Positions 31,456 to 49,355 of a stretch of DNA of 64,000 nucleotides are shown one piece after another. Origin of the DNA: Sphingopyxis sp. (lineage in GTDB: Bacteria > Pseudomonadota > Alphaproteobacteria > Sphingomonadales > Sphingomonadaceae); contig JAEMRT010000017.1 of the NCBI GenBank assembly GCA_016463225.1, positions 1-64,000 of the forward strand, written 5' to 3'. The stretch's first letter is position 1. The number at the start of each line of letters is the position of its first letter. A model generated the notes under the pieces. It did no database searches, had not been told where the DNA came from, and worked only from the letters and a program-made list of their open reading frames with translations. A program made the position numbers and the translations under genes.

Positions 31456-31472
31456 CTGCTCTCCCAAACCAT

Positions 31473-32624
31473 CTACCAACCGCCAATTCGCGGCCATTCT
31501 TCGACCAGCTTTCCTCCGCGCAGCACCGCATAGGAGGTGTAGGCGGCGCAGGTCAGGCAGGCGTGACCGGGAAGAATACGGACGAAGCTGCCGATCGGCA
31601 GGCGTTCGAACCAGCTCTCGTCCGGTACCGGGACACCGCCATGTTCCTGATGGACGGTCGCGACGGCCAGCGCATCCAGCGGCGCGAGCGTGACTGCATC
31701 GCACACCAGGCCATAGCCCGCGTTCGGCATGAAGCGGTTGGCTCCGTCGTCCTTGGACAAGGCGAGCGCGCCGGCGTCGAGGATCAGGCTGGGGGTGGGG
31801 CCGCGTCGCTGGTGGCCGATCACTGCGGCCAGCACCGAGACCGCAATATCGTCTTGCGTGCAAACGGCTCGCGACAATTGGGAAAGATCACCGAAGAGGT
31901 AAATGCCTGCACGAACTTCGGTGACGCCGACCAAATGTTCGGCGAACATAAGCGTTGGAGTCGAACCGACGCTGACAATGGGGCAAGCATAGCCGTGCTT
32001 GCGCAGAAATTCCGCCGATGCAACGGCCGCATACCGCTCAACTTCGGCAAGCGCCCGAACGGGTGCGGGGTCGTCAAAGCGGTAGGAATGCCCGGCGTGG
32101 GTCATCACGCCCATCAGATCGAGTTGCGGAGACCGGGCCTCTATCGCGCGCGCGATCGCGACCAGCTCTTGCGACGCCGGTTCGGTGCCGCTGCGATGTT
32201 CGCCGCAATCAACCTCTATAAGGATGCCGAAGCGCGCTCCGAGCGCTGCTGCGGCTTCCCCCATGACGGCGACCGCCTCCGGGCTATCGAGCACAAGCAG
32301 CAGCCTTGCGCCATGTTCGTGTTGGATATGGTGGGCGCGGGACAGTTTCGCGGGCGCGATGGCGGTCGTGTAGAGGATATCGCGCCAGCCCGCCGCGGCG
32401 AAATATTCGGCTTCGGCCAGCGTCGAAACGCTGATCGGCCCTCTTTTGCCGTTTGCAGCGACACGCGCGACGTCGGTCGACTTGGCCGTCTTCAGGTGCG
32501 GGCGCAAGGTGACCCCCAGCGCGTCGCAGCGACTGCGCATGCGCGCCGCGTTGCGCTCCAGCCGGTCCGCATCAAGGATCAGGTGCGGGGTATGCAACCC
32601 CGCGAACATCGTGGTCGCGCTCAT
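31473..32624 (-). CDS. DSD1-family PLP-dependent enzyme (D-serine dehydratase/D-threonine aldolase-like)
   Basis: TPHLILDADRLERNAARM...LRPHLKTAKS...IEVDCGEHRSG... and C-terminal metal-site-like PGHACLTC. Confidence 0.85.
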   Translation of the reverse strand: MSATTMFAGLHTPHLILDADRLERNAARMRSRCDALGVTLRPHLKTAKSTDVARVAANGKRGPISVSTLAEAEYFAAAGWRDILYTTAIAPAKLSRAHHIQHEHGARLLLVLDSPEAVAVMGEAAAALGARFGILIEVDCGEHRSGTEPASQELVAIARAIEARSPQLDLMGVMTHAGHSYRFDDPAPVRALAEVERYAAVASAEFLRKHGYACPIVSVGSTPTLMFAEHLVGVTEVRAGIYLFGDLSQLSRAVCTQDDIAVSVLAAVIGHQRRGPTPSLILDAGALALSKDDGANRFMPNAGYGLVCDAVTLAPLDALAVATVHQEHGGVPVPDESWFERLPIGSFVRILPGHACLTCAAYTSYAVLRGGKLVEEWPRIGGW

Positions 32625-33253: not shown

Positions 33254-33468
33254 CGATCGAGATCCCAATTTAGCAACGATGGCCAAGAACTGCCGCCAAG
33301 CGGCTCCCCGGACGGCAGGGATGCTGCTGTCCGGCGAGAAGCGATTAGCAATCGCACGGCTCGGCCGGCAAATGCCCGTTGCTGATGGTTTCATGCCGTC
33401 CCGTATGAACATGGCGTTCAAAAATCCGCTCGGGCGATCGCGGTGTCCCATGCACCCGCCATGCTTCC

Positions 33469-34368
33469 CTACGCCTTCGCCAGCCTCCAGAATATTTCGG
33501 CGGATGGAGATTGTCGGCCGCGCGGCCGATACAGCCTGACATCGACCGGAATGTCCCAGTGTGCATCGCCCGCCCGCACCAGCGCACCCTGTTGCAGATC
33601 ATCGGCGACGATGCTCAGCGGCAGCCAGGCCAGTCCTTTTGCGTCCTTTGCCATGCGTGCAAGGATCAGCGTGTGCGACGTGAACACCGGCGTAAAACGC
33701 CCTCGCGTCGCTGTTGCATCAAACATCGCCGACACGATGCGATCCATCCCCGATTCGGCGCCATAGGCCAGCAAATTGACCGGATAAGCGGCGTCATCGG
33801 TCAGCGCGTGCAGGGGAGCCCTGTCGGTTCCTCGTGGAGCGCTGACCGGTACCAACGCATCGGACTTGAGCGAAATCGACTGGAAACCTGCGCCGTCGAG
33901 AACCGACGGAGCGTCTGGGTGGAAATAGCACAGACAAAAATGCGCCTTTCCGCTCAGCATCATCTGCTCGGACGTACCCATATTGTCGGCGGTGAGCTGG
34001 ATCGGAATCTCGGTGTCGGTTTTTGCCTGAAGTGCTGCGAGCCACTGCGGAAAGAAGCTCAGCGCCAACGCGTGCGTAACGAGAATTTTGACCATCGACG
34101 CCGAAGTGCCGGCAATTTCCTGCACCTCGCGCCGACCATGTTCGATGTCGCGCAGAACGGTTTCTGCGATGCTGGCGAAGCGTTTTCCGGCCGGCGTCAG
34201 CACCATCTGGTGCGTGCTGCGGTCGACAAGTTCCGCGCCGAGCCATTCTTCGAGCGCGCGAATGCGGCGGCTGAAGGCCGGCTGGGTAACGCAGCGTGCC
34301 GCGGCTGCGCGCGAGAAATTCCCCGCGAGTATCAGGGCGCCGAAATCCTCAAGCCATGCCAGTTCCAT
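33469..34368 (-). CDS. LysR-family transcriptional regulator
   Basis: WLEDFGALILAGNFSRAAAARCVTQPAFSRRIRALEEWLGAELVDRSTHQMVLTPAG. Confidence 0.92.
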   Translation of the reverse strand: MELAWLEDFGALILAGNFSRAAAARCVTQPAFSRRIRALEEWLGAELVDRSTHQMVLTPAGKRFASIAETVLRDIEHGRREVQEIAGTSASMVKILVTHALALSFFPQWLAALQAKTDTEIPIQLTADNMGTSEQMMLSGKAHFCLCYFHPDAPSVLDGAGFQSISLKSDALVPVSAPRGTDRAPLHALTDDAAYPVNLLAYGAESGMDRIVSAMFDATATRGRFTPVFTSHTLILARMAKDAKGLAWLPLSIVADDLQQGALVRAGDAHWDIPVDVRLYRPRGRQSPSAEIFWRLAKA

Positions 34369-34554
34369 TGCTCATGTTCCTTTGGCCGCCTGGAACTTGT
34401 AATGCCCGAACAAGCTGTGCCTACCCCTCCTGATCAGCATGGATTGATCCATATTGTGCATTGGAGCTGCGTTCGCCCGATTGGCAGGTTGTGTCCAACG
34501 CTGCGACCATCGGCGACGATGGTTGCGAAGACAGGCTGATTGAGGGAGTAAGTG

Positions 34555-36633
34555 ATGGGTTTCATTCTGCGGCAGGAACGACGACATCGGGCCAGTCGAG
34601 CGACGGTCCTGACGGCCGCGATGCTTGGCGCAGCGATCCTCCTCAGCGCTCTGCCGGTGATCGGCGCCGAACCGGGGTCGACGCAGACGGCCGCGCTCGT
34701 CCCGCGCGATGCGCTTTTTGCTTCGCTTACCTATTCCGAACTGCAAATCAGCCCTGACGGCAGGCAGCTCGCTTTTCTCCACCCACTGAATGGCGTCCTG
34801 AACGTCTGGGTCGCGCCGCTCGACGATCCCAAGTCGGCAACCCCCGTAACCCGTTTCGATACAAGGCCGCCCGACAGTTTCCAGTGGAGCCCCGACGGGC
34901 GGTACATAGTGGTGCTCAAGGATGTCGGCGGCGAGGAGCATAGCCAGCTCTGGGTCGCGAACCTTGAAAAACGAACGGTCACCAATATGACCGCCGATCC
35001 GGCCGTGCAGACGAAGATCGTGAAGCTTTCAAAGCGCCGCCCGGGCGAAATCCTGGTTGGCATGAACATTCGCGATCGCCGCTATCGCGACATCTACCGG
35101 ATCGACCTCGCGACGGGGCAGCGGACCGAGGTGTTCCGCAACGAGAAAAACTATATCGACGTCGTTGCCGATCCCGATTTCAACATCCGGCTGCTCGTTC
35201 GTGGCAATGTCGACGGCTCGTCGACCTATCTCCGGGTCGACCCCGCTGGGCCAAGCGAGCTCATGACGATCCCGCTCGCCTCGCTACGCAATTCCAGAAT
35301 TTTGAGTCTCGACGGCAATGGCAAGTTGTTGATGTTCGACAGCCGGACCAGCGACAAAGCGAACCTCGTCTCGGTCGATCTCGCCACAGGCCAGCAGGTC
35401 TTGCTCGCTGCATCGGAACGTGCCGATATCGTCGATCCGCTGTTCGACGAAGCCAGCGGCACGCTGCTCGCAACGCGCGAGGACCCGCTGGTCAGCGAAT
35501 GGACGGTGCGATCGGAGGGCGTGCGTGCCGAGTTTGCGGCGCTCGAAGCAGCCGTCACGGGGCCGTTCAAGATCGTCGATCAGACCGCGGACAATGTGCG
35601 CTGGCTGCTCCTCGAAACGGTTGCGAACCGCCCCGACCGCTATAGCTGGTGGGATCGCAAGAGCAGGACGCTGGCGCCGCTCGTGTCGACGCGGCCCGAC
35701 CTCGACAAACAAGCGCTGGCCCGCCGTATCCCGGTCACGATCGCGTCGCGCGATGGCCTGACGCTGCCCAGCTATCTGACGCTTCCGATCGATGCGAAAC
35801 TCGGGGCCGACGGGATGCCGGTGACGCCCGTCCCGATGGTGCTGCTCGTTCACGGCGGCCCCTGGCTTCGCGACGATCTGGCTTTCGACCCGCAGCACGC
35901 ATGGCTGGCCGATCGCGGCTATGCGGTGCTGTCGGTGAATTTTCGCGCGTCGGGGGGCTTCGGCAGCGATTTCATGGCGAAGGGCGACCGGAAATGGTCG
36001 GAAACGATGCACGACGACCTGCTCGACGGGGTGCAATGGGCCATCGACAAGGGGGTCGCGGCAAAGGACCGCGTCGCGGTGATGGGGCTCTCCTATGGTG
36101 GCTATTCGACGCTCGTAGGGCTAAGTTTTACGCCTGATACCTTTCAGTGCGGCGTCGACCTGGCCGGCCCCAGCAATCTGGTGCGGCAAGTCGCCGCCAT
36201 GCCCGACTGGTGGACGTGGCAGCGTCCGCAGTTCGTCAACCGCGTCGGCGATCCGACGACGCCAGAAGGTGCGGCAGACCTGATGCGTCGCTCGCCGATC
36301 GCGCGCGTCGATGCGATTTCCAGGCCGTTGCTGGTCACCAATGGCGCCAACGATCCGCGCATCTTCCCCAGCCAGTCGGAAGAGATCGTTGATGCGTTGA
36401 AGGCGCGCGGAAAGCCGGTGACCTATGCCTTTTATCCCGACGAAGGGCATGTCTATGCGAAGGACGGCACCAACATTTCGTTCGCCGCAATCGCCGAACA
36501 TTTTCTGTCGCAATGCCTGGGCGGGCCAGCCGAACCCTATGGCGACGATCTTGCCGGATCGCGGGTCGAATTGAAGACCGGTGCCGGATTGATCCCGGGG
36601 CTTGAACAGGCGCTTGCGGATATGGGGAAGTGA
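34555..36633 (+). CDS. S9-family (prolyl oligopeptidase-like) serine peptidase
   Basis: Beta-propeller N-terminus; VMGLSYGGYSTLVGLSFTPD nucleophile elbow; YPDEGHVYAKDGT. Confidence 0.9.
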   Translation: MGFILRQERRHRASRATVLTAAMLGAAILLSALPVIGAEPGSTQTAALVPRDALFASLTYSELQISPDGRQLAFLHPLNGVLNVWVAPLDDPKSATPVTRFDTRPPDSFQWSPDGRYIVVLKDVGGEEHSQLWVANLEKRTVTNMTADPAVQTKIVKLSKRRPGEILVGMNIRDRRYRDIYRIDLATGQRTEVFRNEKNYIDVVADPDFNIRLLVRGNVDGSSTYLRVDPAGPSELMTIPLASLRNSRILSLDGNGKLLMFDSRTSDKANLVSVDLATGQQVLLAASERADIVDPLFDEASGTLLATREDPLVSEWTVRSEGVRAEFAALEAAVTGPFKIVDQTADNVRWLLLETVANRPDRYSWWDRKSRTLAPLVSTRPDLDKQALARRIPVTIASRDGLTLPSYLTLPIDAKLGADGMPVTPVPMVLLVHGGPWLRDDLAFDPQHAWLADRGYAVLSVNFRASGGFGSDFMAKGDRKWSETMHDDLLDGVQWAIDKGVAAKDRVAVMGLSYGGYSTLVGLSFTPDTFQCGVDLAGPSNLVRQVAAMPDWWTWQRPQFVNRVGDPTTPEGAADLMRRSPIARVDAISRPLLVTNGANDPRIFPSQSEEIVDALKARGKPVTYAFYPDEGHVYAKDGTNISFAAIAEHFLSQCLGGPAEPYGDDLAGSRVELKTGAGLIPGLEQALADMGK

Positions 36634-36737
36634 GCGTCGGCTAAGGCTCGCCCAGATATTTCGCAAAGGCAGCATCGCCCATCGCTGGGTCGGCATCGCC
36701 GCCGGCCGGGCGTGCCGGATCATCGCCGGCGGCCGCG

Positions 36738-39167
36738 CTAACGGCTCTGCGACCCATATTCGAGCGTGGTGGTCGAGCGGGCCGTCTTGCGGATCCGGTC
36801 GGGCGAAAGCTCGATCTTCTTGAGCTCGTTGGTCTCGTGCATCATCGTCTGGTCGGCGAGATGCGGGTTGCCCCTGCTGTCGGGGCCGATGAACAGGTTT
36901 TGACCGCCCGCATCGACGACCGAATAGAGCGCGCGCCGGTCGGCGCCGATTTCCATCAGCCCGACCCAGCTTTCGCCGCCATTATGCGGCGCCATGGTTG
37001 GCCCGAGCCGCAGTACGGCGGACAGGCGCTTTTCGGGCGCGTCCTCGGCCATCTGCGGACGCTCGGGCGTCTCCAGCGATGCGTCGAAATATTTCCAGAA
37101 GATCGGCTGCTTCCATTCGGCCATATCCTTGCCGGGGAAGCGCGGTTTGACCTCGGCGAGCGTCGCCTTGATCGTGTCGATCAGGACCGCGGTGCGGTCG
37201 CGCCCGTTGAAATAATCGACGCCCAGCGGCGCCCCCGCCGTATCGCCCTGGAAGGCGCGCAGCAGCAGGCTCGACTGATAGGTCAGGTAACGGCCGTCAT
37301 CGATCGCCTTCCACCAGTCGTCCATATCGTCGCCGAAAACGACGCGCGGCGCGACCTGCAGCCAGGCGCGATAGAGCGTCAGACCTGGATCGTCGTATTT
37401 ATGGTCGCCGTCGCGGTCCTGATAGAGCCCGTTGAAGCCGAGCATATATTCAACCGCGCGCTTCACCTCGGGATCGTCGCTCGCCTCGATCGCCTTGCGC
37501 AGATGGGGCGCGAAAAAGTCCGGTGCCGCCTGGTTGCGATCGACCGCGCCGAGCGCGTTGAAAATCTTGCCGTTGAACTCGCGCATATCGAGCAAGGTCA
37601 GCGACTGGCCCGCCTTGGCGAGCCGGTCACCGAGCCGGGTGCGAAAGGTTGCGCCGATCCGCGCATTGTCGCCTTCCTGCGACCAGCCCGTCGCCTTGCT
37701 GTTCCACGAGAAGAGATAGCCTTGCCGCGGGTTGATCATGTGCGGCTTTTCATCGCGCGTCAGAAAGCCCGTCCATTCATATTCGCCGGTGCCCGGCGTC
37801 GGCAGCCGCGGATCGACCCCCGCCGCCTTCTTCGGCAGCGCGCCGGCCTCGAAATAGGCGATCGTACCATCCTCGCCGCCGTAACAGGCGCCAAGGTTCC
37901 AGCCGAGCCGGTCGACCCCCTTTTCGCGGAACTCGGCGAGGCTTTTGGCGCGGCCCATTTCGGCAAAGGCGACCCATGTGTCGAGCTCGCGCCCATGCAC
38001 GCCCATCTGCTGCGCGTAGGCGGTGCCGTTTTCGGCGTCCCAGGCGATCACCGGCCCGTGGATCGTCCACGCGACCTCGCTCGTCACGGTCGCGCCGTCC
38101 TTGACCTTGAAGGTCTCAGTGCGATGTTCCATCCGCTTCCACGCGCCTTTGTGCCAATATTCATACCGGTTCGCCGGGTTGAGCTTTTCGGCGAACATGG
38201 TGCCGGCTTCGCTGCTGCCCGATACGAGCAGCCAGCCATGCTGCGCCCCGCGCCCCATCGTCGGCACACCCCAGCCGGTCGAGCCGAACCCGGCATTGTC
38301 GAAGCCGCCGCCGTGCAGGTGGATTTCGGGGCCGTCGGCGGTCGCCTCGAGCATCAACACCTTGCCGCTTGCGGACTTTTCGGGGCCGACGACCATGCAG
38401 CGGCTCGCGCCCTTCACCGGCTGGAGCGGCGCCACCTGCGCGGCGGCCGCCGCGACGCCGCCGGACGGCAGCTGGACCGGCGAGAGCACCGGCGTGGGTA
38501 TGGGCCGGGCAGGGGCGAGATCGTCGCCCGCCGGGATCGTTGTCGGGGAATCGGGATCGGAAATCGGCACGACGTCGTTGAAAATCTGCCACGCCCTCTC
38601 CTGCCCGTAGCGCGCGATCATCGCTTTCAGGAATTTGAGGTTCTGGATCTCGTAGCTTTCGCGGCCGAGCGGCGCGGCGCTGATCAGCGCGAGATATTCG
38701 GTGAGGCTCCAACGCGTCGGCTTGATTCCCCAGCGGATGAATTCGAGCGGGGTCAGCCGTGCGGGGTCGGCATTCACTTCGTCGATGCGCTTGTTGATAC
38801 CGTCGACCATCGCCTGGATCATCTGGCGATGCTCGGGCGCGAGCGCCTTGTAGCGCTGCATCAGCACCGGGTCGGAAAGCCGCCGCCCGCGCATCATCTT
38901 GTCGCCTTCGATCGCGGAAGCGCCCAGAAGCTCGGCGCGGCGGCCCTGCGTGTTGTGCCGCGCTAGCTCCATCGCGGCGAGGCGATCGGACGCGATCGCA
39001 TAGCCCGCGCCGAACATAACGGCGTCCGATGTCTCCGCCTGCACGTGCGGCACCCCGAAATCGTCGCGGTAGATGCTGACCTTTTCGGCGGCGTTCGCCT
39101 GCGCGGCCACCGCGAGTAGCAGAATGGTCGAAGCATGGAGCAAGGCGGCAGTCGAACGGCGCATCAA
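36738..39167 (-). CDS. penicillin acylase family protein (Ntn hydrolase)
   Basis: Signal peptide; VSIYRDDFGVPHVQAETSDAVMFGAGYAIASDRLAAMELARHNTQGRRAEL; probable beta-chain start GA/SRCMVVGPEKSASGKVLMLEA. Confidence 0.85.
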   Translation of the reverse strand: MMRRSTAALLHASTILLLAVAAQANAAEKVSIYRDDFGVPHVQAETSDAVMFGAGYAIASDRLAAMELARHNTQGRRAELLGASAIEGDKMMRGRRLSDPVLMQRYKALAPEHRQMIQAMVDGINKRIDEVNADPARLTPLEFIRWGIKPTRWSLTEYLALISAAPLGRESYEIQNLKFLKAMIARYGQERAWQIFNDVVPISDPDSPTTIPAGDDLAPARPIPTPVLSPVQLPSGGVAAAAAQVAPLQPVKGASRCMVVGPEKSASGKVLMLEATADGPEIHLHGGGFDNAGFGSTGWGVPTMGRGAQHGWLLVSGSSEAGTMFAEKLNPANRYEYWHKGAWKRMEHRTETFKVKDGATVTSEVAWTIHGPVIAWDAENGTAYAQQMGVHGRELDTWVAFAEMGRAKSLAEFREKGVDRLGWNLGACYGGEDGTIAYFEAGALPKKAAGVDPRLPTPGTGEYEWTGFLTRDEKPHMINPRQGYLFSWNSKATGWSQEGDNARIGATFRTRLGDRLAKAGQSLTLLDMREFNGKIFNALGAVDRNQAAPDFFAPHLRKAIEASDDPEVKRAVEYMLGFNGLYQDRDGDHKYDDPGLTLYRAWLQVAPRVVFGDDMDDWWKAIDDGRYLTYQSSLLLRAFQGDTAGAPLGVDYFNGRDRTAVLIDTIKATLAEVKPRFPGKDMAEWKQPIFWKYFDASLETPERPQMAEDAPEKRLSAVLRLGPTMAPHNGGESWVGLMEIGADRRALYSVVDAGGQNLFIGPDSRGNPHLADQTMMHETNELKKIELSPDRIRKTARSTTTLEYGSQSR

Positions 39168-39185
39168 AGCGTCTCCCCGGATTGG

Positions 39186-40382
39186 TTATTTGGGCAGGAA
39201 TGTCTCGGTCAAGGCGACCCACAGCGCTGCGCCCGTCGGCGAAATGCTGTCGTCGTAGGCGTAGTGCGAATTATGGAGCATCACCGACCCCGGCCCCTCG
39301 TCGCCGTTGCCGAGCAGGAGGAAGCAGCCGGGCACGACGTCGAGGTAGCGCGCAAAATCCTCGCCCCCCATGCCCGGCGCGTCGAGGTCGACGAAGCGGT
39401 CGGGACCGACAACGCCGATCGCGATGTCGCGGACCCTGGCATAAAGATCGGCCGGATTGTGGAGGGCAGGGTAGCCGCGTTCGTAATGAAGCTCGGCAGT
39501 CGCGCCGAAGGATGCCGCGACGCCGGTGACGATCTCGCGCAGCCGCTGCTCGGTCGCATCCTGGCTTGCACGCGACAAGGTGCGTACCGTTCCGCCCATG
39601 CGCGCTTCGTCGGCGATGATGTTGAATGCGGTGCCTGCCTCGACCTTGCAGATCGACACGACCGCGGCGTCCATCGGGTCAGTGCTGCGCGCGACGATGC
39701 TCTGCACGGCGACGATGATCTGCGCGGCGACGAGCACCGGATCGACGGTCAGGTGCGGGCGCGCCGCATGGCCACCCTTGCCCGTGACGACGATCTCGAA
39801 CTTGTCGGCGGCGGCATAAAGCGCGCCCGCGCGCCCCGCGAGCTTGCCTGCCGCGAGGCCGGGGCGGTTGTGAACGCCGAAGATGGCGTCCATCGGAAAG
39901 CGATCGAACAATCCGTCGCGGATCATCGCGCTGGCGCCGCCATCGGGGTCGCCGCCCGGCCCCTGATAGCCGAGCGATTCCTCGGCGGGTTGAAAGATCA
40001 GGTGCACCGCACCGTCGAAGTTGCGCGTCGCGGCGAGATGCTTTGCGGCGCCCAGCAGCATCGTCGTATGCCCGTCATGGCCGCAGGCGTGCATCACGCC
40101 GGGTGTGCAGGATTTATGGTCGGACTCGGTCAGTTCGGTCATCGGCAGCGCGTCGATGTCGGCGCGGATGCCAATTGCGCGATCCGACCCGCCGGCGCGG
40201 ATCGTCGCGACGATGCCGGTGCCACCGATGCCGGTCGCGACCTCGTCGACGCCAAAGCTTTCGAGCAGGTCGAGGATGAAACGGACCGTGCCGTCTTCGT
40301 GAAAGCCGAGTTCGGGGTGCTGGTGGATATGCCGGCGCCAGGCGGTCATGTCGGCTTCGAGTGATAAGACGTCAACGGACAT
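39186..40382 (-). CDS. M20-family amidohydrolase (aminoacylase/hippurate hydrolase-like)
   Basis: RRHIHQHPELGFHE, GIRADIDALPM, HACGHDGHTTMLLGAAK, VHLIFQPAEE. Confidence 0.92.
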   Translation of the reverse strand: MSVDVLSLEADMTAWRRHIHQHPELGFHEDGTVRFILDLLESFGVDEVATGIGGTGIVATIRAGGSDRAIGIRADIDALPMTELTESDHKSCTPGVMHACGHDGHTTMLLGAAKHLAATRNFDGAVHLIFQPAEESLGYQGPGGDPDGGASAMIRDGLFDRFPMDAIFGVHNRPGLAAGKLAGRAGALYAAADKFEIVVTGKGGHAARPHLTVDPVLVAAQIIVAVQSIVARSTDPMDAAVVSICKVEAGTAFNIIADEARMGGTVRTLSRASQDATEQRLREIVTGVAASFGATAELHYERGYPALHNPADLYARVRDIAIGVVGPDRFVDLDAPGMGGEDFARYLDVVPGCFLLLGNGDEGPGSVMLHNSHYAYDDSISPTGAALWVALTETFLPK

Positions 40383-40496
40383 GGGGACGCACCTCCTGGC
40401 GCAGCGGCAAGGTCAGGCTAGGGGCGGTGGGCCGCCCGCCCCAATGCTTATTGGACATGGTTGCATGTTCCACGGCAAATTTCATCACGGGTTCCC

Positions 40497-42128
40497 TCAA
40501 GGCGCGGCGTGCGCCGCAACCTGATAGAAGACCTGCGCGTGCGGGCCGAGCGGGAGGTCGAACATGACCCAAGCGACGACCATCGTGATTCCCGTGGCCA
40601 TGAAGCAAAGCGCATAGGGCAGCATCAGTGCGAGCAGCGATCCGACCCCCATCGACTTGTCCCACCGCTGGCAAAAGACGAGGACGAGCGGGAAATAGCT
40701 CATCAGCGGCGTCATGATGTTGGTATAGCTGTCGCCCATGCGATAGGCGGCGGTCGTCATTTCGGGGCTGATGCCGAGCAGCATGAACATCGGCACGACG
40801 ACCGATGACAGGACGCTCCATTTCGCCGTCGCCGACCCGATGAACAGGTCCATCACCGACGACAGGAGCAGGACGCAGACGAGCAGCAGCGGCGCGGGCA
40901 GGTTCATGCCCTGCAGTTTTTCGGCGCCACTGATCGCGATGATCGGTCCGATCCCTGACCAGTTGAACATCGCCACGAAATGCGCGGCGAAAAAGACGAA
41001 GACGAGGTAGGGCGCGATCGTCTTTACCCCCTCGCGCATCATCGCGATCACGTCGTTCGAATTTTTGACCGTGCCGACGGCGCGACCGAAGACGACACCG
41101 GTGAGCAGAAACAACAGGAACAGCGCGGCGATCATCGATCCGTAGAGCGGCTGGAGCCGGATCGGGCCGGTGGCGTCCTGGTCGATAAACGGCGTGTATC
41201 CGGGCCAGAGACAAAGCGCGGCGAACAGTGCAACCACCACCAAGGCAGCAACGCCCGCACGACGTAGTCCCCGCCGCTCGTCGTCGCTGAGGTCGCCCTT
41301 TTCGAGGTCGGCGCGCAGCTCGTCGTCGATCACCTCATTCCATGCGCCGAGGCGCGGTTCGACGATCCGGTCGGTGACGAACCAGATGATCGGCGTAAAA
41401 AGGACGACGATGCCGAGAATGAAATACCAGTTGCCGAGCGGGTTCATCGTCCAGCCCGGATCGACGATACGCGCAGCCTCTTGCGTGAAGCCGAAGAGCA
41501 GGACGTCGAGCTGGCCGGGCATGATATTGCCGGCATAGCCGCCCGAAACGGCGGCGAGCGCGGCAGCGATTCCCGCGAGCGGGTGGCGACCGACCGAAGC
41601 GAAAAGCACCGCAGCCATGGGGATCAGCACGACATAGGCGGCGTCGGCGGCGTGGTGCGAAACCATGCCCACCACCGCGATGATCGGGGTCATGTAGCGG
41701 CGTGGGGTGTTACGCAGCGAGCCGCGGATCAGCGCGAAGAACAGCCCCGACCGCTCGGCAACCGCGGCGCCCATCATGATCGTCAGGATGATGCCGAGCG
41801 GGGTGAAGCTGGCATAGGTGCGCGGCATCTCGGTAAACAGGCGCGCGATATTCTCGGCCGAAAACAGGCTCTCGGCGCGATAGGTGAGGATCCCGCCCGC
41901 GAGTTCGGCGCCGGCGGGCGCCTCCTTGCCCGAATAGGGCAGTGATGCATTCCATCCGCTGGCTGCGCCGATTGCCGATATGATCATCAGCACGACGATC
42001 AGGTACAGGAAGATGATGGTGGGGTCGGGCAACAGATTGCCGACCCGCTCGACGAAGCCAAGAAATCCCCTTTGGCGCGCGGGGCGGATGGCTTCGGCGC
42101 GCGCGATCGCGCCTTCCTGACCGGGCAA
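40497..42128 (-). CDS. AbgT-family transporter
   Basis: FVERVGNLLPDPTIIFLYLIVVLM, FTPLGIILTIMMGAAVAERSGLF, VVGMVSHHAADAAYVVLIPMAA. Confidence 0.92.
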   Translation of the reverse strand: MPGQEGAIARAEAIRPARQRGFLGFVERVGNLLPDPTIIFLYLIVVLMIISAIGAASGWNASLPYSGKEAPAGAELAGGILTYRAESLFSAENIARLFTEMPRTYASFTPLGIILTIMMGAAVAERSGLFFALIRGSLRNTPRRYMTPIIAVVGMVSHHAADAAYVVLIPMAAVLFASVGRHPLAGIAAALAAVSGGYAGNIMPGQLDVLLFGFTQEAARIVDPGWTMNPLGNWYFILGIVVLFTPIIWFVTDRIVEPRLGAWNEVIDDELRADLEKGDLSDDERRGLRRAGVAALVVVALFAALCLWPGYTPFIDQDATGPIRLQPLYGSMIAALFLLFLLTGVVFGRAVGTVKNSNDVIAMMREGVKTIAPYLVFVFFAAHFVAMFNWSGIGPIIAISGAEKLQGMNLPAPLLLVCVLLLSSVMDLFIGSATAKWSVLSSVVVPMFMLLGISPEMTTAAYRMGDSYTNIMTPLMSYFPLVLVFCQRWDKSMGVGSLLALMLPYALCFMATGITMVVAWVMFDLPLGPHAQVFYQVAAHAAP

Positions 42129-42202
42129 AACGGGTTCTCCTTTGAAAAACGGGATGAGGCCCGCGCGCGAAAGTCACGCGGGCCGCATCCGTCTGGGTCG
42201 GG

Positions 42203-45200
42203 TCAGAAATTCACTTCGAGACCGGCCCGGATGACCGGACCGAATTGTTCGAAACCGCCGCCCGACGGATCGATGACCTGAACCGATTCCATCACTGGCA
42301 GCTTCTCGTTGAAAAGGTTGGTGACCCCGAACGAGAATTTGGCTTCCTGTTTGCCGTTCAGCGACAACGTGTAGGAGGCGGAGATGTCGTTGTAGAAACG
42401 CGATCCCGTACGGTCGGGCGACAGCAGTTCGCTGCTGATCCCCGGCGAGATGTCGGTCAACGCCTGGCTGGACTGATAGCGCCCCTGCCAGCCGAGCGTC
42501 AGCGGCCCGTTCGAATAGGTCAGCCCGACGACGCCCTTATATTTGGGATAGCCGTAGTAGCCTTCGAGCACCGTGAACAGGTCGGGCCGCGACTGGAAAG
42601 TATAGGTCCGCAGGCGGTGCAGATAGGTGAAAGCGAGGTTGGTCGAAATGCGGCCGCCGCTCAGCGGGAGAGCGTAGAACAGCTGGGTGTCGAGCCCCGA
42701 TGTTTCCAGCTTCGACGTGTTCACATAGGTGCTGTTGCCCGTCGTGATGCCAAAGAAGTTCGGGCTTGCGGTGTTCGACTCGCGCGTGATCAGCGAGCAG
42801 AGGTCGAGATCGGGGCCACCGGCGCGGTCGACGCAGTTTTCGGCGATCTGCTGGGGGCTGAGGAAACTGATCGCATCGTCGATCTCGATATTGAACCAGT
42901 CGGCCGAGATCTGAAGGCCGGGCAGGAAATTGGGCGTCAGGACGATGCCCGCCGTCCAGCTGTCCGACACTTCGGGGCTGAGATCCTGGTTGCCCGACAC
43001 GATGAAGGGTACCCCGACCCCGCCGTTAAGTGGCGTGAAGCCCGCAGGGCGCCCGAGCGCGGCGCAGTTGGCCGCGCGGTTCGGGTTGAGCCCGAGGTTG
43101 GTCTGTGCGCACGGGTCATTGACATTGGTCGTCTGCCCCTCGCTCGGCCGGAAGGCCTCGAAGATGTTCGGGGCGCGGATCGCGCGGCTGATCGTTGCGC
43201 GAAGCCGCAGGCCGTCGGTCGGCTCCCAGATCGCTCCTGCTTTCCACGAGGTCGCCTGTCCGGCGTGGCTGTAATCGGCGTGGCGCACCGCGCCCTCGAT
43301 CGACAGCAATTCAAAGAATGGCATGTCGGTCAGGATCGGGATGCTGAGCTCGCCGAAAAATTCTGTGACATCGTAGCCGCCTTCATAATCCTGCGTTGCA
43401 GCCTGGTTGGTTAGGCCCGCCTTGATCAGCGGGTCGGTCGTGCGGCCGTTGCGTTCCTTGCGATATTCGGCGCCGAGAGCGAAGCCGACCGCACCGCCGC
43501 CCGGCATGGTCAGGAATTTTTCGGTGTCGCCCGCCAGCGAAAAACCGGCGGTTGTCTGCCGGATGAAGGCGTTCGAAACCGTCGTCGTCTTGACGAAGTT
43601 GCGAGCTTCCTGCGAGCTGGCGGTCGACCCGAAGGGATTGAAGGGGGCGCAGGGCGTGCTGCCCTGGATATTCGGGCGCACATAGCCGACCGGCTGCCGC
43701 GCGGGAACGTCGGCCCGGCACCGGATCTGCCCGGTCGCGGGATCGACCACCGCGTCGAGCGCGGCGAGCAAATTGGGAACGATCAGGCGGTTATAGCCGA
43801 TGAACTTCGCCTTGGTGCGGCCATAGGTGCCGTAAACATCAAAGCGAAGATCGGCGAAACCGGTCTCGAACTCGCCCTTGAACCCGCCGACGAACGACAG
43901 GCTGTTGCGGTCGACCTGGCTGAAACGAAGGCCGACGTCGGTATAGAGCCGGTCGAGGCGCAAGGTCGTTGCACCCGCGGCGAGAAGGCGCTGGCGGAAA
44001 TCCTGGTTGAGGAAGGCATTCTGCGCGATGTTGATCGCGACGCCTGAACGGATGACCGGCTGACCGCGGCCGTAGCTGGACGTGTTGTTGTAATCGACGC
44101 CGAAATAGCCGCGCACGCTGTCGCTGAAGTCATAATGGGCGCTGAGGTTGAGATTGTAGCGCTCGATGTCGGGAACGATCGAGATTGAATCGTCGAAGCG
44201 GAAGCAGGCGACGCCACAATTGTCGAAAATACCGAACAGGCTGCCGTCGGTCAGGCTGGGCGTCGGGAAGGGGCGGACGGTACCGTCGTCGTTGAAGACA
44301 AAGCGCCCGAGGCCGCCGGTGTCGTTGCCGAAGCCCACAACGCCATAGCCCGAGAAGCGCAGCGCCTCGCCGCCGGGGGCGACGATCATGTCGGGTATGC
44401 CATCGTCGGGACCCGTGTCGGCGGGATTGAGCATCGCGACATAATTTTTCATGTCGGCCTGGCGCGGCGTCAGTTCCTTGACCTTCGTATAATCGCCGGC
44501 CACAGTGATGTTACCGCGGCCGTCGCTGAAGTTCATCCCGGCGACAAGGCTGGCGCCATAGGTCAGGCCTTCCGAACCGCGCGCGGGCTGCGAACCGTTG
44601 AACGACAGGCGAAATCCGTCGAAATCATCCTTGGTGATGATGTTGACCACGCCCGATACGGCATCGGAGCCATAGATCGCCGATGCACCGCCGGTGATTA
44701 CCTCGATGCGCTCGATCAGATTGGGATTGATCGAATTGAGGTCGATCGCGGTGCTGTCGGTCGCGCCGGCGACGCGGCGCTTGCCGTTGACGAGCACAAG
44801 CGTGCGGTTCGACCCGAGACTGCGCAGGTCGACGAGAGCGAGGCCGCCGCTGTTTTCGCCGCGCGACCCCGATGCGCCGGTCTGCTGGCTTTGCTGCATG
44901 CTGCCCGAAAAGCCGATCGACGGCTGCTGTGCGAGCGCGCGGCCGATGTCGAATTGCGCGTTGTTGTTGTCGAGCGCTTCCGAGGTCACGACGCCGACGG
45001 GGGTCGGCAGGTCGAGGACGGGGCGACCGATGCGCGACCCCGTCACGACGATGTCACTACCACCCTCTATAGCCTGCTCATCGGCCGGTGCGATGGCGTC
45101 CTGAGCCTGTGCGGTGCCTGCCAAGCTCGCGCACAGCGCGATGGCGAAAAGCGACGTGGATATATTGAGCTGGCCGCTCTTGGCTGCCGTTGCCGGTCCC

Positions 45201-45208
45201 TGGATCAT
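42203..45208 (-). CDS. TonB-dependent receptor
   Basis: Plug SDIVVTGSRIGRPVLDLPTPVGVVTSEAL...LVDLRSLGSNRTLVLVNGKRRVAG; ~1000 aa barrel ending AGLEVNF. Confidence 0.94.
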   Translation of the reverse strand: MIQGPATAAKSGQLNISTSLFAIALCASLAGTAQAQDAIAPADEQAIEGGSDIVVTGSRIGRPVLDLPTPVGVVTSEALDNNNAQFDIGRALAQQPSIGFSGSMQQSQQTGASGSRGENSGGLALVDLRSLGSNRTLVLVNGKRRVAGATDSTAIDLNSINPNLIERIEVITGGASAIYGSDAVSGVVNIITKDDFDGFRLSFNGSQPARGSEGLTYGASLVAGMNFSDGRGNITVAGDYTKVKELTPRQADMKNYVAMLNPADTGPDDGIPDMIVAPGGEALRFSGYGVVGFGNDTGGLGRFVFNDDGTVRPFPTPSLTDGSLFGIFDNCGVACFRFDDSISIVPDIERYNLNLSAHYDFSDSVRGYFGVDYNNTSSYGRGQPVIRSGVAINIAQNAFLNQDFRQRLLAAGATTLRLDRLYTDVGLRFSQVDRNSLSFVGGFKGEFETGFADLRFDVYGTYGRTKAKFIGYNRLIVPNLLAALDAVVDPATGQIRCRADVPARQPVGYVRPNIQGSTPCAPFNPFGSTASSQEARNFVKTTTVSNAFIRQTTAGFSLAGDTEKFLTMPGGGAVGFALGAEYRKERNGRTTDPLIKAGLTNQAATQDYEGGYDVTEFFGELSIPILTDMPFFELLSIEGAVRHADYSHAGQATSWKAGAIWEPTDGLRLRATISRAIRAPNIFEAFRPSEGQTTNVNDPCAQTNLGLNPNRAANCAALGRPAGFTPLNGGVGVPFIVSGNQDLSPEVSDSWTAGIVLTPNFLPGLQISADWFNIEIDDAISFLSPQQIAENCVDRAGGPDLDLCSLITRESNTASPNFFGITTGNSTYVNTSKLETSGLDTQLFYALPLSGGRISTNLAFTYLHRLRTYTFQSRPDLFTVLEGYYGYPKYKGVVGLTYSNGPLTLGWQGRYQSSQALTDISPGISSELLSPDRTGSRFYNDISASYTLSLNGKQEAKFSFGVTNLFNEKLPVMESVQVIDPSGGGFEQFGPVIRAGLEVNF

Positions 45209-45386
45209 GTTTTTTCTCCGCCCTTAACCCTGCCAGAACCGTCCGTTCGTCGGTTAGTGCTAGGGTCCAGCCTGTCTATGGACATGCGGACATCGATCCC
45301 AATGCCGGTTCGACATAGAATCATTCGTGCGGCGTGAGCGGCATCTGCGTAGCATTGTTGCGCGGCGCGCCTCGCATCCTCGCGTG

Positions 45387-46307
45387 TTACTGGGCGGCCT
45401 CGGCCTTCAAGCGATTTTTCAGCATCGTCCAGAAGGCCTCGACGCTCGGGCTCCGCCGCGCGATTGGTTTGTAGATGCGGATTTCGATCGGGACGTGCCA
45501 GCGGGCATCGCCCGCCGAGACGAGACGGCCGCTTTCGACGTCTGCGGCGGCGACGCTGAGCGGCGCCCAGCAGACCCCGCGCCCGTCGCGCGCCATCGAC
45601 AGCAGCGCGGTTGCCATATGCGATCGGAACACGGTGCGAAGTGACGCCGAACCCGCCGAAATCACCTGTGCCGCCTGCAAGATGCGGCCCATGCCTGATT
45701 TTTCCTCGAACTCCAGATAGGGGAGTTGCTGGTCGCCACTGCCCGGCAGGACGTGCGTGGGGCTCCCGTCGCCGAGCGGGGCGGTCACGGGCAGCAGCAC
45801 ATCCTCGCCAAGCCGAAGCGAGGCAAAGCCCGCTGGATCGAGCCTGTGCTGCGCGGCCGTATGATGATGGCAGAGCAGGAAATCGGCCTTGCCTTCGAGC
45901 ATGAAGCGTTCGCAAGCGACCATATGGTCGGCGATCAGCGTGATCGTGCCCGCCTCCTGCCCGTCGTGCAGGCTGCGGAGCCAGGCTGGAAAAAAGGTCG
46001 TCGACAGCGCGTGCGTCGATGCGAAACGGATTTCGTTGCTCAGCGTGCCGCCGATTTCGCGGACATGATCGCGACCCAGCGTGAGGCGCCGCATGATTTC
46101 CTCGGCGAGAACCCGGAACGCCTGCCCGGCCTCGGTCAACGCGATGCGGTGGGTATCGCGATCGACGAGCGTCGCGCCGACCCAGTCCTCGAGCGCGCGG
46201 ATACGACGGCTGAACGCCGGCTGGGTCAGGTTGCGCGCTTCGGCTGCGCGAGAAAAATTGCCTTCATCCGCGAGCTTGATGAAGTCCTCGAGCCACATGA
46301 TATCCAT
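45387..46307 (-). CDS. LysR-family transcriptional regulator
   Basis: MWLEDFIKLADEGNFSRAAEARNLTQPAFSRRIRALEDWVGATLVDRDTHRIALTEAG. Confidence 0.92.
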   Translation of the reverse strand: MDIMWLEDFIKLADEGNFSRAAEARNLTQPAFSRRIRALEDWVGATLVDRDTHRIALTEAGQAFRVLAEEIMRRLTLGRDHVREIGGTLSNEIRFASTHALSTTFFPAWLRSLHDGQEAGTITLIADHMVACERFMLEGKADFLLCHHHTAAQHRLDPAGFASLRLGEDVLLPVTAPLGDGSPTHVLPGSGDQQLPYLEFEEKSGMGRILQAAQVISAGSASLRTVFRSHMATALLSMARDGRGVCWAPLSVAAADVESGRLVSAGDARWHVPIEIRIYKPIARRSPSVEAFWTMLKNRLKAEAAQ

Positions 46308-46409
46308 TTGATTCCACTCGTCGCATCAATTGATACTGTCCCGGCATTGGCTTCGTCCGAACCGCTGACGGTAATCCCAGCCCGCGAAACCGCAGGAAGG
46401 GTATGAAGA

Positions 46410-47846
46410 ATGTCGGCGCCAAAAACGCTCTATGACAAGATCGTCGACGAACACCGTATATTGTCTTTCGACGAATCCGGCGGCGCCGGCGAACGATTGT
46501 TGCTCTATATCGATAGGACGGTGCTGAACGAATATACAAGCCCCCAAGCGTTCAGCAGCCTCCGCGCCGCTGGACGAGCCGTCTGGCGCCCTGCCGCGGC
46601 GCTGGGGGTCGTCGATCATGTCAATTCGACCAACCCCGACCGCGCGGCGGGCGAGCTTGACGACGGCGCGCGGCGGCAGATCGAATATCTGGGCGAGAAT
46701 GGGCGCGATTTCGGCATCGAAATTTTCGATCTCTTCGACCCGCGGCAAGGGATCGAGCATGTCGTAATGCCCGAACTCGGCCTTGTGCTGCCGGGCATGG
46801 TGATCGCCGCGGGTGACAGCCATTCGACCACCTATGGCGCGTTCGGCGTCGTCGGTTTCGGTATCGGCACGTCAGACATCGAACATCTGCTCGCGACGCA
46901 GACGCTCGTCTATCGCCGCCTCAAAACGATGCGCATCACGATCGACGGGACGCTGGCGCCCGGCGTCACCGCAAAGGACCTGATCATGGATGTGATCCGC
47001 CGGATCGGCGCCGACGGCGCGACCGGCCATGCCGTCGAATTCGCCGGTCAGGCGATCGACGCGCTTGGGGTCGAGGCGCGCATGACGATTTGCAACATGG
47101 CGGTCGAATGCGGCGCGCGGGTCGCGCTGATGGCGCCCGACGACAAGGTTGTCGACTATATCGCCGGCTGTCCCCGCGCGCCGTCGGCGGAACGGCGCGC
47201 GCGCGCGCGCGCCGATTGGCGGACGCTGCGTAGCGATCCAGACGCGCGCTTCGACAAGGAAATCATGCTTGAAGCCGACGATATCCCGCCGATGGTGAGC
47301 TGGGGAACCAGTCCGGATCAGTCGCTTGCAATCACCGGCGCCGTCCCCGATCCAGCGGAACTGCCCGTTGAGCGCCGCGCCGACGCGATCCGCGCAATGG
47401 CCTATATGGACCTTGCGCCGCGCACGCTGCTGCAGGACATCGCAATCGATCGCGCCTTCATCGGATCATGCACCAACGCGCGCCTGACCGACCTGCGCGA
47501 TGCCGCGCAGATTTTGAAGGGGCGCAAGGTCGCGCCGGGGGTTCGCGCGATGATTTCGCCGGGCAGCAGCGGCGTCCGCCGGGCCGCCGAGGCGGAAGGG
47601 ATTGATCGCATCTTCATCGACGCGGGGTTTGAGTGGCGCCGCTCGGGCTGTTCGCTCTGTCTCGCGATGAACGACGACAGCCTTGCGCCGGGTGAGCGCT
47701 GCGCATCGAGCACCAACCGCAATTTCGAGGGTCGGCAGGGCATCGGCGGCCGCACGCATCTGATGAGCCCTGCGATGGTCGCGGCAGCAGCGGTCACCGG
47801 AAGGCTCGCCGATGTACGGGTGCTCGCCGCAGAGGATATTTTCTGA
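46410..47846 (+). CDS. LeuC-like aconitase-family large subunit (3-isopropylmalate dehydratase large subunit homologue)
   Basis: VIAAGDSHSTTYGAFGVVGFGIGTSDIEH, FIGSCTNARLTDLRDAA, GCSLCLAMNDDSLAPGERCASSTNRNFEGRQG Fe-S motifs. Confidence 0.88.
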   Translation: MSAPKTLYDKIVDEHRILSFDESGGAGERLLLYIDRTVLNEYTSPQAFSSLRAAGRAVWRPAAALGVVDHVNSTNPDRAAGELDDGARRQIEYLGENGRDFGIEIFDLFDPRQGIEHVVMPELGLVLPGMVIAAGDSHSTTYGAFGVVGFGIGTSDIEHLLATQTLVYRRLKTMRITIDGTLAPGVTAKDLIMDVIRRIGADGATGHAVEFAGQAIDALGVEARMTICNMAVECGARVALMAPDDKVVDYIAGCPRAPSAERRARARADWRTLRSDPDARFDKEIMLEADDIPPMVSWGTSPDQSLAITGAVPDPAELPVERRADAIRAMAYMDLAPRTLLQDIAIDRAFIGSCTNARLTDLRDAAQILKGRKVAPGVRAMISPGSSGVRRAAEAEGIDRIFIDAGFEWRRSGCSLCLAMNDDSLAPGERCASSTNRNFEGRQGIGGRTHLMSPAMVAAAAVTGRLADVRVLAAEDIF

Positions 47847-48469
47847 TGGAACGCTTCATCCGACTGTCGGGCCGCGCCGCCGCGATGCCCGCCGCCAACA
47901 TCGATACCGACGTCATCATGCCCAAGGCTTTCCTGAAAGGGATCGACCGTTCCGGGCTGGCGATCGGTCTCTTCCACGATCTTCGTTTCGATGAAAACGG
48001 CGCGGTGCGCGACGATTTCATTCTCAACCGGGCCGATATGGCGGAGACGCGCTTCCTGATCGTCGGACCCAATTTCGGCTGTGGCTCGTCGCGCGAACAT
48101 GCGGTGTGGGGGATGCTGCAATATGGAATCCGCGGCATCATCGGTTCCTCCTATGGCGCGATTTTCGCCGACAATGCCGCGAACAACGGCTTGCTCCTGT
48201 TGTCGCTGCCGACCACAGAAATCTCAGCGCTCGTAGCGGCACTCGACGAGGGGGCCGGGGACATGACCGTCGACCTTGAGACGCAGCGCATCGAGATGGG
48301 CACTTACGCGGCTGGTTTCGATATCGATCCGGCGACGCGGCAGGCGCTGATGCTTGGGCTTGACCGAATCGGCGAGACGCTGACGCATGCCGATCGCATC
48401 CGCGCGTTCGAGCAGACCTATCTCGGCCGCAAGCCCTGGCTTATCGGTGCGGGTGGCGATGCGCATTAG
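47846..48469 (+). CDS. LeuD-like aconitase-family small subunit
   Basis: AANIDTDVIMPKAFLKGI, VGPNFGCGSSREHAVWGM; overlaps leuC-like stop. Confidence 0.88.
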   Translation: MERFIRLSGRAAAMPAANIDTDVIMPKAFLKGIDRSGLAIGLFHDLRFDENGAVRDDFILNRADMAETRFLIVGPNFGCGSSREHAVWGMLQYGIRGIIGSSYGAIFADNAANNGLLLLSLPTTEISALVAALDEGAGDMTVDLETQRIEMGTYAAGFDIDPATRQALMLGLDRIGETLTHADRIRAFEQTYLGRKPWLIGAGGDAH

Positions 48470-49355
48470 GCCCGAATATCCTGAGCTCATGCCGGGTTTC
48501 CGATGGCAGGACGTCGACGCAGGCGGCGTCCGCATCCGCACGGCGATCGGCGGGGCGGGGCCGCCCTTGCTGCTGCTCCACGGCCACCCGCAGACGCATC
48601 TGACCTGGCACAAGGTCGTGCCAGAGCTGGCGAAGCGCTTCACCGTCGTGGCAACCGACTTGCGCGGCTATGGCGACAGCGAAAAGCTGCCCGGCGATGC
48701 AGCGCATGAAAATTACTCGAAACGCGCGATGGCGGCCGATCAGGTCGCGGTGATGGCGGCCCTTGGTTTCGACCGCTTCGACGTCGTTGCGCACGATCGC
48801 GGCGCGCGCGTCGCGCACCGCATGGCACTTGACCATCCCGACCGCGCCGGGCGGCTCGTCCTGCTCGACATCGCGCCCACCGCGACAATGTACGCCAATA
48901 CGAACCGCGAGTTTGCAACGCGCTATTTCTGGTGGTTCTTCCTGATCCAGCCGTTCGACCTGCCCGAACGAATGATCGCCGCGGATCCCGACCATTTTCT
49001 CGACCGTCATCTCGCCGGCCAGATCAAGGTCGAAGGCTCGCTCGATCCACGGGTGGTGGCAGAATATCGGCGTTGTTACCGTGATCCTGCAACGCGCCAC
49101 GCGATCTGCGAGGATTATCGCGCCGCCGCGAGCATCGACCTTGACCATGACGCTGCCGACGCCGATTGCCGTGTCGAAGCGCCGCTGCTTTTGTTGTGGG
49201 GCGAATATGGCACGGTGGGGACACTCTTCGACGTCATGGCAAGCTGGCAATCGAAGGCCGTCGACACGCGCGGCCGAGCGCTGCCCTGCGGCCACAGCCC
49301 CCAGGAAGAAGTGGCGGACCTGTTGCTGGCGGAACTGGACGCGTTTCTCGCTTGA
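48462..49355 (+). CDS. alpha/beta hydrolase, haloacetate (fluoroacetate) dehalogenase-like
   Basis: LLLHGHPQTHLTWHKVVPELAKRFTVVATDLRGYGDSEKL..NYSKRAMAADQV..VVAHDRGARVAHRMALDHPDRAGRLVLLDIAPT..WWFFLIQPFDLPE (Asp nucleophile context). Confidence 0.8.
   Translation, partial: RIRPEYPELMPGFRWQDVDAGGVRIRTAIGGAGPPLLLLHGHPQTHLTWHKVVPELAKRFTVVATDLRGYGDSEKLPGDAAHENYSKRAMAADQVAVMAALGFDRFDVVAHDRGARVAHRMALDHPDRAGRLVLLDIAPTATMYANTNREFATRYFWWFFLIQPFDLPERMIAADPDHFLDRHLAGQIKVEGSLDPRVVAEYRRCYRDPATRHAICEDYRAAASIDLDHDAADADCRVEAPLLLLWGEYGTVGTLFDVMASWQSKAVDTRGRALPCGHSPQEEVADLLLAELDAFLA

What the first reader, a model, noticed from the sequence alone, without database searches (positions are those of the whole stretch)
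36738..45208. Candidate N-acyl-amino-acid/peptide utilisation operon: TonB receptor-AbgT-M20 amidohydrolase-penicillin acylase
Four minus-strand genes form a complete route: outer-membrane import, secreted Ntn acylase, inner-membrane AbgT carrier, cytoplasmic M20 deacylase, with an S9 peptidase and a LysR alongside. Plausible substrates are N-acyl amino acids, p-aminobenzoyl-glutamate or folate fragments, acyl-homoserine lactones, or beta-lactam breakdown products. I cannot say which, and this arrangement may be an undescribed scavenging system.
Basis: inference. Interest (0 to 1): 0.65.

Follow-up and report, generated by a model that had tools for sequence, protein, structure and literature searches.

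The report
LysR-controlled acyl-peptide utilisation gene island
The four neighbouring genes are real, but they are the middle of a conserved, horizontally shared 13-gene island, marked by one shared operator-like DNA motif, that probably lets some Sphingopyxis and Sphingosinicella bacteria import acylated small peptides, strip the acyl group and eat unusual (D- or beta-hydroxy-) amino acids; the natural substrate is still unknown.

Summary
Observation confirmed: on the minus strand 36738-45208 lie a penicillin-G-acylase-type Ntn hydrolase, an M20D deacylase, an AbgT carrier and a TonB receptor, with an S9 peptidase and LysR genes beside them. These genes sit inside an ~18 kb, 13-gene block (31042-49355) that adds RidA, a beta-hydroxy-D-amino-acid dehydratase-like PLP enzyme, HAD, a second LeuC/LeuD pair and an alpha/beta hydrolase. 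The block is collinear in other Sphingopyxis (16 of 80 genus genomes carry the acylase) and in Sphingosinicella, is under purifying selection, and looks horizontally transferred. Most relatives have one more gene, an FAD oxidoreductase, of which only the last codons remain here. A 27-bp operator-like motif, CCAATGC-N9-AT-N6-ATG, lies at all five leader regions, and a narrower form recurs at three promoters of a divergent version elsewhere, so this looks like one LysR regulon. p-Aminobenzoyl-glutamate, AHL, penicillin G and microcystin readings are weakened or rejected. Most likely mechanism: TonB import of acylated peptides, periplasmic deacylation and peptide cleavage, AbgT uptake, cytoplasmic M20 deacylation, then dehydration/deamination of D- or beta-hydroxy-amino acids. 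The substrate was not identified.

The parts
31042..31437 (-). RidA-family imine/enamine deaminase
   Evidence: Pfam PF01042, TIGR00004 106.6 bits over its cut-off of 106.25; syntenic in block loci that reach this far, except L029, which lacks the whole LysR33-RidA arm
31473..32624 (-). PLP enzyme of the D-serine/D-threo-3-hydroxyaspartate dehydratase family (DSD1)
   Evidence: Best PDB match D-threo-3-hydroxyaspartate dehydratase 3wqc, 280 bits; His/Cys metal-ligand motif HAC kept as in dehydratases, where D-threonine aldolase has His/Asp (PMC4401734)
32621..33250 (-). HAD type II-like hydrolase (true start near 33250; the ORF to 33451 is over-long)
   Evidence: PF00702; best PDB match 9c9e 'Fluoroacetate dehalogenase 4A', 203 bits; many homologues begin near residue 61 of the long ORF
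33369..33395 (+). Operator-like motif, 1 mismatch, upstream of HAD-DSD1-RidA
33469..34368 (-). LysR regulator 1 (HypT-like superfamily)
   Evidence: PF00126 + PF03466; HypT model 114.7 bits, below cut-off 301
34438..34464 (-). Operator-like motif, exact, between divergent LysR 1 and S9
34552..36633 (+). S9 prolyl-oligopeptidase/acylaminoacyl-peptidase-like enzyme with N-terminal signal/anchor
   Evidence: PF00326; nearest solved relatives are acyl-peptide hydrolases
36642..36668 (-). Remnant (AKYLGEP-stop) of a DAO-type FAD oxidoreductase that is intact at this place in most relatives
   Evidence: no close copy elsewhere in the genome
36738..39164 (-). Penicillin-acylase (S45/Ntn) family enzyme with signal peptide; nucleophile Ser255 and oxyanion Asn489 kept
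39186..40382 (-). M20D N-acyl-amino-acid amidohydrolase, cytoplasmic
   Evidence: TIGR01891 360 bits over cut-off 153.75; nearest solved relative IAA-amino-acid hydrolase 1xmb
40441..40467 (+). Operator-like motif, exact, in the AbgT-M20 gap
40497..42128 (-). AbgT-family inner-membrane transporter
   Evidence: PF03806; nearest solved MtrF 4r1i, 385 bits, and YdaH 4r0c, 326 bits
42203..45208 (-). TonB-dependent outer-membrane receptor, 1001 aa
   Evidence: PF07715 + PF00593; below every siderophore/heme model cut-off
45299..45325 (+). Operator-like motif, 1 mismatch, upstream of the TonB receptor
45387..46307 (-). LysR regulator 2 (paralogue of LysR 1)
46324..46350 (-). Operator-like motif, exact, between divergent LysR 2 and LeuC
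   Evidence: stretch invariant in 9 aligned loci
46410..47846 (+). Second LeuC-type aconitase-family large subunit
   Evidence: TIGR00170 612 bits; a separate copy with 758 bits lies at G000:C231
47846..48469 (+). LeuD-type small subunit
   Evidence: TIGR00171 172 bits over cut-off 116
48453..49355 (+). Alpha/beta hydrolase of the fluoroacetate-dehalogenase/epoxide-hydrolase clan, Asp nucleophile (HDRGAR)
   Evidence: 4nvr 397 bits; fluoroacetate dehalogenases 240-319 bits

Best explanation
The 18 kb block is one LysR-controlled catabolic island for acylated small peptides or amides. Mechanism proposed: the TonB receptor takes the acyl-peptide across the outer membrane; in the periplasm the Ntn acylase removes the acyl group and the S9 peptidase cuts the peptide; AbgT carries a remaining N-acyl amino acid or dipeptide across the inner membrane; the cytoplasmic M20 enzyme removes the last acyl or amino-acyl group; the released D- or beta-hydroxy-amino acid is dehydrated by the PLP enzyme to an enamine/imine that RidA hydrolyses; the FAD oxidoreductase (lost here) would oxidise an amine/amino acid; LeuC2D2 and the alpha/beta hydrolase process a dicarboxylic hydroxy-acid fragment. 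Shown: gene content, conserved order, selection, shared motif, catalytic residues. Inferred: compartments, transport direction, order of steps, substrate class.
For: Block collinear in Sphingopyxis and Sphingosinicella genomes; all genes tested dN/dS 0.05-0.19. One 27-bp motif at all five leader regions; 5 matches in 64 kb against 0.28 expected, 0 of 100 shuffles reaching 5. The narrower pattern CCAATGC-N9-ATCAR occurs exactly 3 times in 5.6 Mb, 2 of them here, and recurs exactly at three promoters of the divergent G227 locus (acylase 54-55% identical) and in front of dctA in G875. In G227 the same modules LysR-LeuC-LeuD-hydrolase and transporter-M20-S9-acylase are joined. Acylase Ser/Asn kept; PLP enzyme His/Cys kept. 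RidA next to a PLP dehydratase is chemically coherent (established knowledge of RidA).
Against: No substrate demonstrated. AbgT relatives YdaH/MtrF are proposed exporters, so AbgT might export. LeuC2D2-hydrolase occurs alone in other genera (G630, G875), so its tie to peptides may be recent. The motif pattern was refined on the block's own leader regions, so the window count is partly circular. LysR binding is inferred. The AlphaFold model of the acylase was poor (pLDDT 58), so the pocket could not be modelled. L029 lacks the LysR-HAD-DSD1-RidA arm, so the arm is not indispensable.
Confidence: 0.55

Rival explanations
1. Two separate systems lie side by side: a dicarboxylate module (LysR-LeuC2-LeuD2-hydrolase) and an N-acyl-amino-acid scavenging operon (TBDT-AbgT-M20-acylase), brought together by chance and sharing only a regulator.
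For: LysR-LeuC-LeuD-hydrolase occurs without peptide genes in G630 and with dctA in G875; acylase occurs without the block in G108, G216, G169.
Against: The joined form is kept in two genera and, rearranged, in G227, where both modules carry the same motif.
Confidence: 0.25
2. The acylase degrades N-acyl-homoserine lactones (quorum quenching) and the block feeds on them.
For: PF01804 family includes AHL acylases; weak match to PvdQ.
Against: PvdQ model 46.6 bits against cut-off 950; best solved relatives are penicillin G acylases; AHL breakdown would not require S9, AbgT, DSD1, RidA or LeuCD (established knowledge).
Confidence: 0.04
3. p-Aminobenzoyl-glutamate/folate fragment utilisation as in E. 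coli abgABT.
For: AbgT family carrier next to an M20 enzyme.
Against: AbgT equivalog 335 bits against 864; single M20D enzyme close to IAA-amino-acid hydrolases, not the AbgA/AbgB pair; unexplained acylase, PLP and LeuCD genes.
Confidence: 0.04
4. Beta-lactam (penicillin G) catabolism: acylase removes phenylacetate.
For: Closest solved relatives are penicillin G acylases.
Against: Residues aligned with the phenylacetyl pocket changed (F24 to D278 with a 7-residue loop deletion, F57 to M309, S67 to L314); no beta-lactamase or phenylacetate genes in the block.
Confidence: 0.03
5. A late stage of microcystin/nodularin breakdown (D-amino acids, dehydroamino acid), since both genera include known microcystin degraders.
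For: Taxonomic overlap with mlr-carrying genera (literature); D-amino-acid type enzymes.
Against: The MlrC-type family PF07364 is absent from the window's genome and found in only 5 of the 18 block or block-variant genomes tested and 3 of 18 without the block.
Confidence: 0.05

Closest known systems
Penicillin G acylase (peptidase family S45, PF01804)
   Same: Fold family, N-terminal Ser nucleophile and oxyanion Asn aligned, signal peptide
   Different: 7-residue deletion at the substrate-pocket loop, three pocket residues changed, Ser-Arg-Cys instead of Ser-Asn after the cleavage site; sits in a peptide-utilisation block
E. coli abgABT p-aminobenzoyl-glutamate system
   Same: AbgT carrier beside an M20 amidohydrolase
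   Different: One M20D enzyme of the IAA-amino-acid hydrolase type, plus outer-membrane receptor, periplasmic acylase and 9 more genes
D-threo-3-hydroxyaspartate dehydratase (Delftia sp. HT23) / D-serine dehydratase (DSD1 family)
   Same: Whole-length match (280 bits), His/Cys metal ligands of the dehydratase type
   Different: Activity untested; embedded with RidA, HAD and a LysR in an acyl-peptide block
TonB receptor plus S9 peptidase loci such as lasso-peptide isopeptidase (AtxE2)
   Same: TonB receptor near an S9-like enzyme in sphingomonads
   Different: AtxE2 model 72 bits against cut-off 400; no lasso genes seen

Membership tests
Penicillin G acylase / S45 Ntn hydrolase | N-terminal Ser nucleophile (position 1 of the beta chain) | tested here: met
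   Ser255 aligns with beta-Ser1 and is invariant in 15 homologues
Penicillin G acylase / S45 Ntn hydrolase | Oxyanion-hole Asn (beta-N241) | tested here: met
   Asn489 aligns with N241, invariant
Penicillin G acylase (phenylacetyl-specific) | Phenylacetyl pocket residues F24, F57, S67 (residue roles from own knowledge) | tested here: not met
   Aligned to D278, M309, L314, with a 7-residue loop deletion
AHL acylase PvdQ | NCBIfam NF051460 cut-off 950 | tested here: not met
   46.6 bits
AbgT p-aminobenzoyl-glutamate transporter | NCBIfam NF008459 cut-off 864 | tested here: not met
   335.5 bits; Pfam family membership met at 666 bits
AbgT transporter family (PF03806) | Asp/Trp/Pro/Arg residues named for transport in YdaH (D180, W400, P418, R426; own knowledge) | tested here: met
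   All four aligned residues identical (alignment)
AbgT transporter family | Import rather than export | not testable with these tools
   Needs transport assay
DSD1 dehydratase subfamily | His/Cys metal ligands (His/Asp in D-threonine aldolase) | tested here: met
   HAC motif aligned to the two ligand positions that are altered in 3wqg and 4pb3 (PMC4401734)
3-hydroxy-D-aspartate aldolase BhcC | NCBIfam NF045642 cut-off 690 | tested here: not met
   141 bits
Fluoroacetate dehalogenase (alpha/beta hydrolase) | Halide pocket His-Trp-Tyr (H155, W156, Y219; own knowledge) | tested here: inconclusive
   Trp and Tyr kept, the His position is Trp (FWWFF against YHWFF in 3qyj)
HypT (hypochlorite regulator) | NCBIfam NF007488 cut-off 301 | tested here: not met
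   125.5 and 114.7 bits for the two LysR proteins
TonB siderophore receptor TIGR01783 | Cut-off 223.5 | tested here: not met
   67.8 bits
Housekeeping LeuCD (leucine biosynthesis) | Being the genome's only or best LeuC | tested here: not met
   Another LeuC with 758 bits exists at G000:C231; this one has 612

The most novel reading that the evidence does not exclude
A so far undescribed LysR regulon that eats acylated peptides containing beta-hydroxy-dicarboxylic amino acids (for example beta-hydroxyaspartate, as in lipopeptide siderophores): receptor uptake, periplasmic deacylation, M20 cleavage, dehydration of the D-beta-hydroxy-amino acid to a keto acid with RidA, and LeuC2D2/hydrolase processing of a dicarboxylic fragment; that is, competitors' lipopeptides used as nitrogen and carbon source.
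Probability: 0.15. Interest if true: 0.75.

Novelty: new variant of a known kind. Interest (0 to 1): 0.5.

Why it matters
It defines a transferable 13-gene catabolic unit with a precise candidate operator, so the question of what such TonB receptor/acylase clusters feed on becomes directly testable. If the substrate is a lipopeptide, siderophore or other acylated natural product, it would show how freshwater and soil sphingomonads consume their neighbours' secondary metabolites. It would also give functions to LeuCD paralogues, AbgT carriers and penicillin-acylase homologues whose annotation rests on family names alone.

Tried and rejected
Microcystin link: MlrC-type PF07364 absent in the own genome and not exclusive to block genomes. 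AHL, p-aminobenzoyl-glutamate and penicillin G readings: failed family cut-offs or pocket residues. Lasso-peptide isopeptidase reading of S9: 72 bits against 400. Siderophore receptor reading of the TBDT: below cut-off. Contexts of acylase homologues in G108/G216/G169 (unrelated neighbours) and of LeuC2 in other classes gave no substrate. DAO homologue search in the class at E <= 1e-90: none. AlphaFold of the acylase was poor (pLDDT 58), so no fold search was made. Literature: no paper combining Sphingopyxis with penicillin acylase and TonB receptor, nothing relevant for AbgT with receptor and acylase, nothing for beta-hydroxyaspartate siderophore degradation in Sphingopyxis.

Full report
Observation. 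S9 is convergent with the acylase, 104 bp apart, so it is not in that transcript.

The unit is larger than four genes. Comparing relatives from genome contigs and further whole genomes shows one collinear block: alpha/beta hydrolase, LeuD, LeuC, then divergent LysR, TonB receptor, AbgT, M20, acylase, FAD oxidoreductase, then convergent S9, LysR, HAD, PLP enzyme, RidA. In most loci that extend far enough, all these genes are present at 66-97% identity. Exceptions are the FAD oxidoreductase, missing in the window, in L031 and in L103, and the LysR-HAD-PLP-RidA arm, missing in L029. In the window only the last codons of the FAD enzyme remain next to the acylase (AFAKYLGEP-stop), and no close copy exists elsewhere in the genome. 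Two relatives (L032, L037) carry amino-acid ABC-transporter genes between acylase and FAD enzyme. A Sphingosinicella MAG carries an amidase and a diaminopropionate ammonia-lyase-like gene at the edge (identified by eye, not by a family search).

Distribution and history. The acylase is found in 9 of 301 genomes of the family (three of these, in one genus, lack the block, and two are distant, 30% identical) and in 16 of 80 genomes of the window's genus. Sphingosinicella copies of the block are about as similar to the window (mean 84%) as same-genus copies (85-88%). A 60-residue probe of the chromosomal D-Ala-D-Ala ligase gives 58-63% for Sphingosinicella and 92-97% within the genus. This points to horizontal transfer of the block; one short probe is thin, so a tree would be a better test. 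All genes tested are under purifying selection (dN/dS 0.05-0.19).

Regulation. Alignment of the leader regions revealed a stretch invariant in 9 loci at LeuC|LysR and related stretches before the TonB receptor and at S9|LysR. The consensus CCAATGC-N9-AT-N6-ATG has 5 matches (up to 1 mismatch) in the 64 kb window, expected 0.28, none of 100 shuffles reaching 5, and all five lie in the five leader regions of this block. In the whole genome it has 22 such matches, five of them here. The pattern was refined on these regions, so this count is partly circular. Independent support: the earlier pattern CCAATGC-N9-ATCAR occurs without mismatch at three promoters of the divergent G227 locus and in front of dctA in G875. 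LysR binding is inferred from the two LysR genes and the promoter positions.

Enzymes. Acylase: closest solved relatives are penicillin G acylases; Ser255 and Asn489 match the nucleophile and oxyanion residue, while the phenylacetyl pocket loop is deleted and altered. M20: nearest to IAA-amino-acid hydrolase, YxeP and N-alpha-acyl-glutamine aminoacylase, thus an N-acyl-amino-acid deacylase type. AbgT: four transport residues kept, subfamily cut-offs not reached. PLP enzyme: 280 bits to D-threo-3-hydroxyaspartate dehydratase with the His/Cys ligand pair that distinguishes the dehydratase from D-threonine aldolase (PMC4401734). RidA passes TIGR00004; hydrolysis of the enamine/imine product of such a dehydratase is its established role. 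LeuC is a second copy (612 bits, against 758 for the other copy). HAD and alpha/beta hydrolase resemble dehalogenases or epoxide hydrolases, but the halide pocket of the latter is incomplete.

A divergent version. In G227 the order LysR-LeuC-LeuD-hydrolase, MFS carrier, M20, S9, acylase has an MFS carrier in place of AbgT. G630 and G875 have only LysR-(DctA)-LeuC-LeuD-hydrolase. The core chemistry of that module therefore concerns a small acid, probably a dicarboxylate (inference from DctA, which was identified by eye, and from aconitase-family specificity).

Mechanism. Shown: gene content, order, conservation, selection, motif, catalytic residues. Inferred: TonB import, periplasmic deacylation and peptide cleavage (signal peptides seen by eye in the sequence), AbgT uptake, cytoplasmic M20 cleavage, dehydration plus RidA, and LeuCD handling of a dicarboxylic fragment. 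The substrate remains unidentified; acylated peptides with D- or beta-hydroxy-amino acids fit the enzyme set best.

Alternatives tested and weakened: p-aminobenzoyl-glutamate, AHL, penicillin G, lasso peptide, siderophore receptor, microcystin. The remaining serious rival is two neighbouring systems under one regulator.

Novelty. Every enzyme family is known; the regulon, its composition and its transfer were not found described in the papers searched. Rated as a new variant of a known kind, interest 0.5.

Noticed in passing
window 36642-36668: Last codons of a deleted FAD oxidoreductase gene that is intact in most relatives: gene loss inside the conserved block.
   Followed up: yes
L074, L118, L119, L120, L121, L122, L123: LysR-LeuC2-LeuD2-alpha/beta hydrolase cassette (or parts) in other families and classes, next to DctA-like, CitMHS-type carrier, MmgE/PrpD-like and AtuA-like genes (named by eye); its substrate is unknown.
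   Followed up: partly
L032:12450-13223, L037:13082-13846: Amino-acid ABC transporter genes inserted between acylase and FAD oxidoreductase in two relatives.
   Followed up: partly
G000:C158:75055-75075 (L124, L154): Only other exact CCAATGC-N9-ATCAR match in the genome; no clear gene next to it in the 3 kb read.
   Followed up: partly
window 29055-30671: TonB receptor ORF of 538 aa that seems to lack the usual N-terminal plug part, next to another receptor (25334-27700) and a carrier (27721-29004).
   Followed up: no
window 50373-52505: Trimeric autotransporter (YadA-like) protein with head repeats, directly beside the block.
   Followed up: no
G000 assembly: The window's assembly is 5.6 Mb in 239 contigs with 7% contamination; genome-wide counts of motif or paralogues may include foreign contigs.
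   Followed up: no
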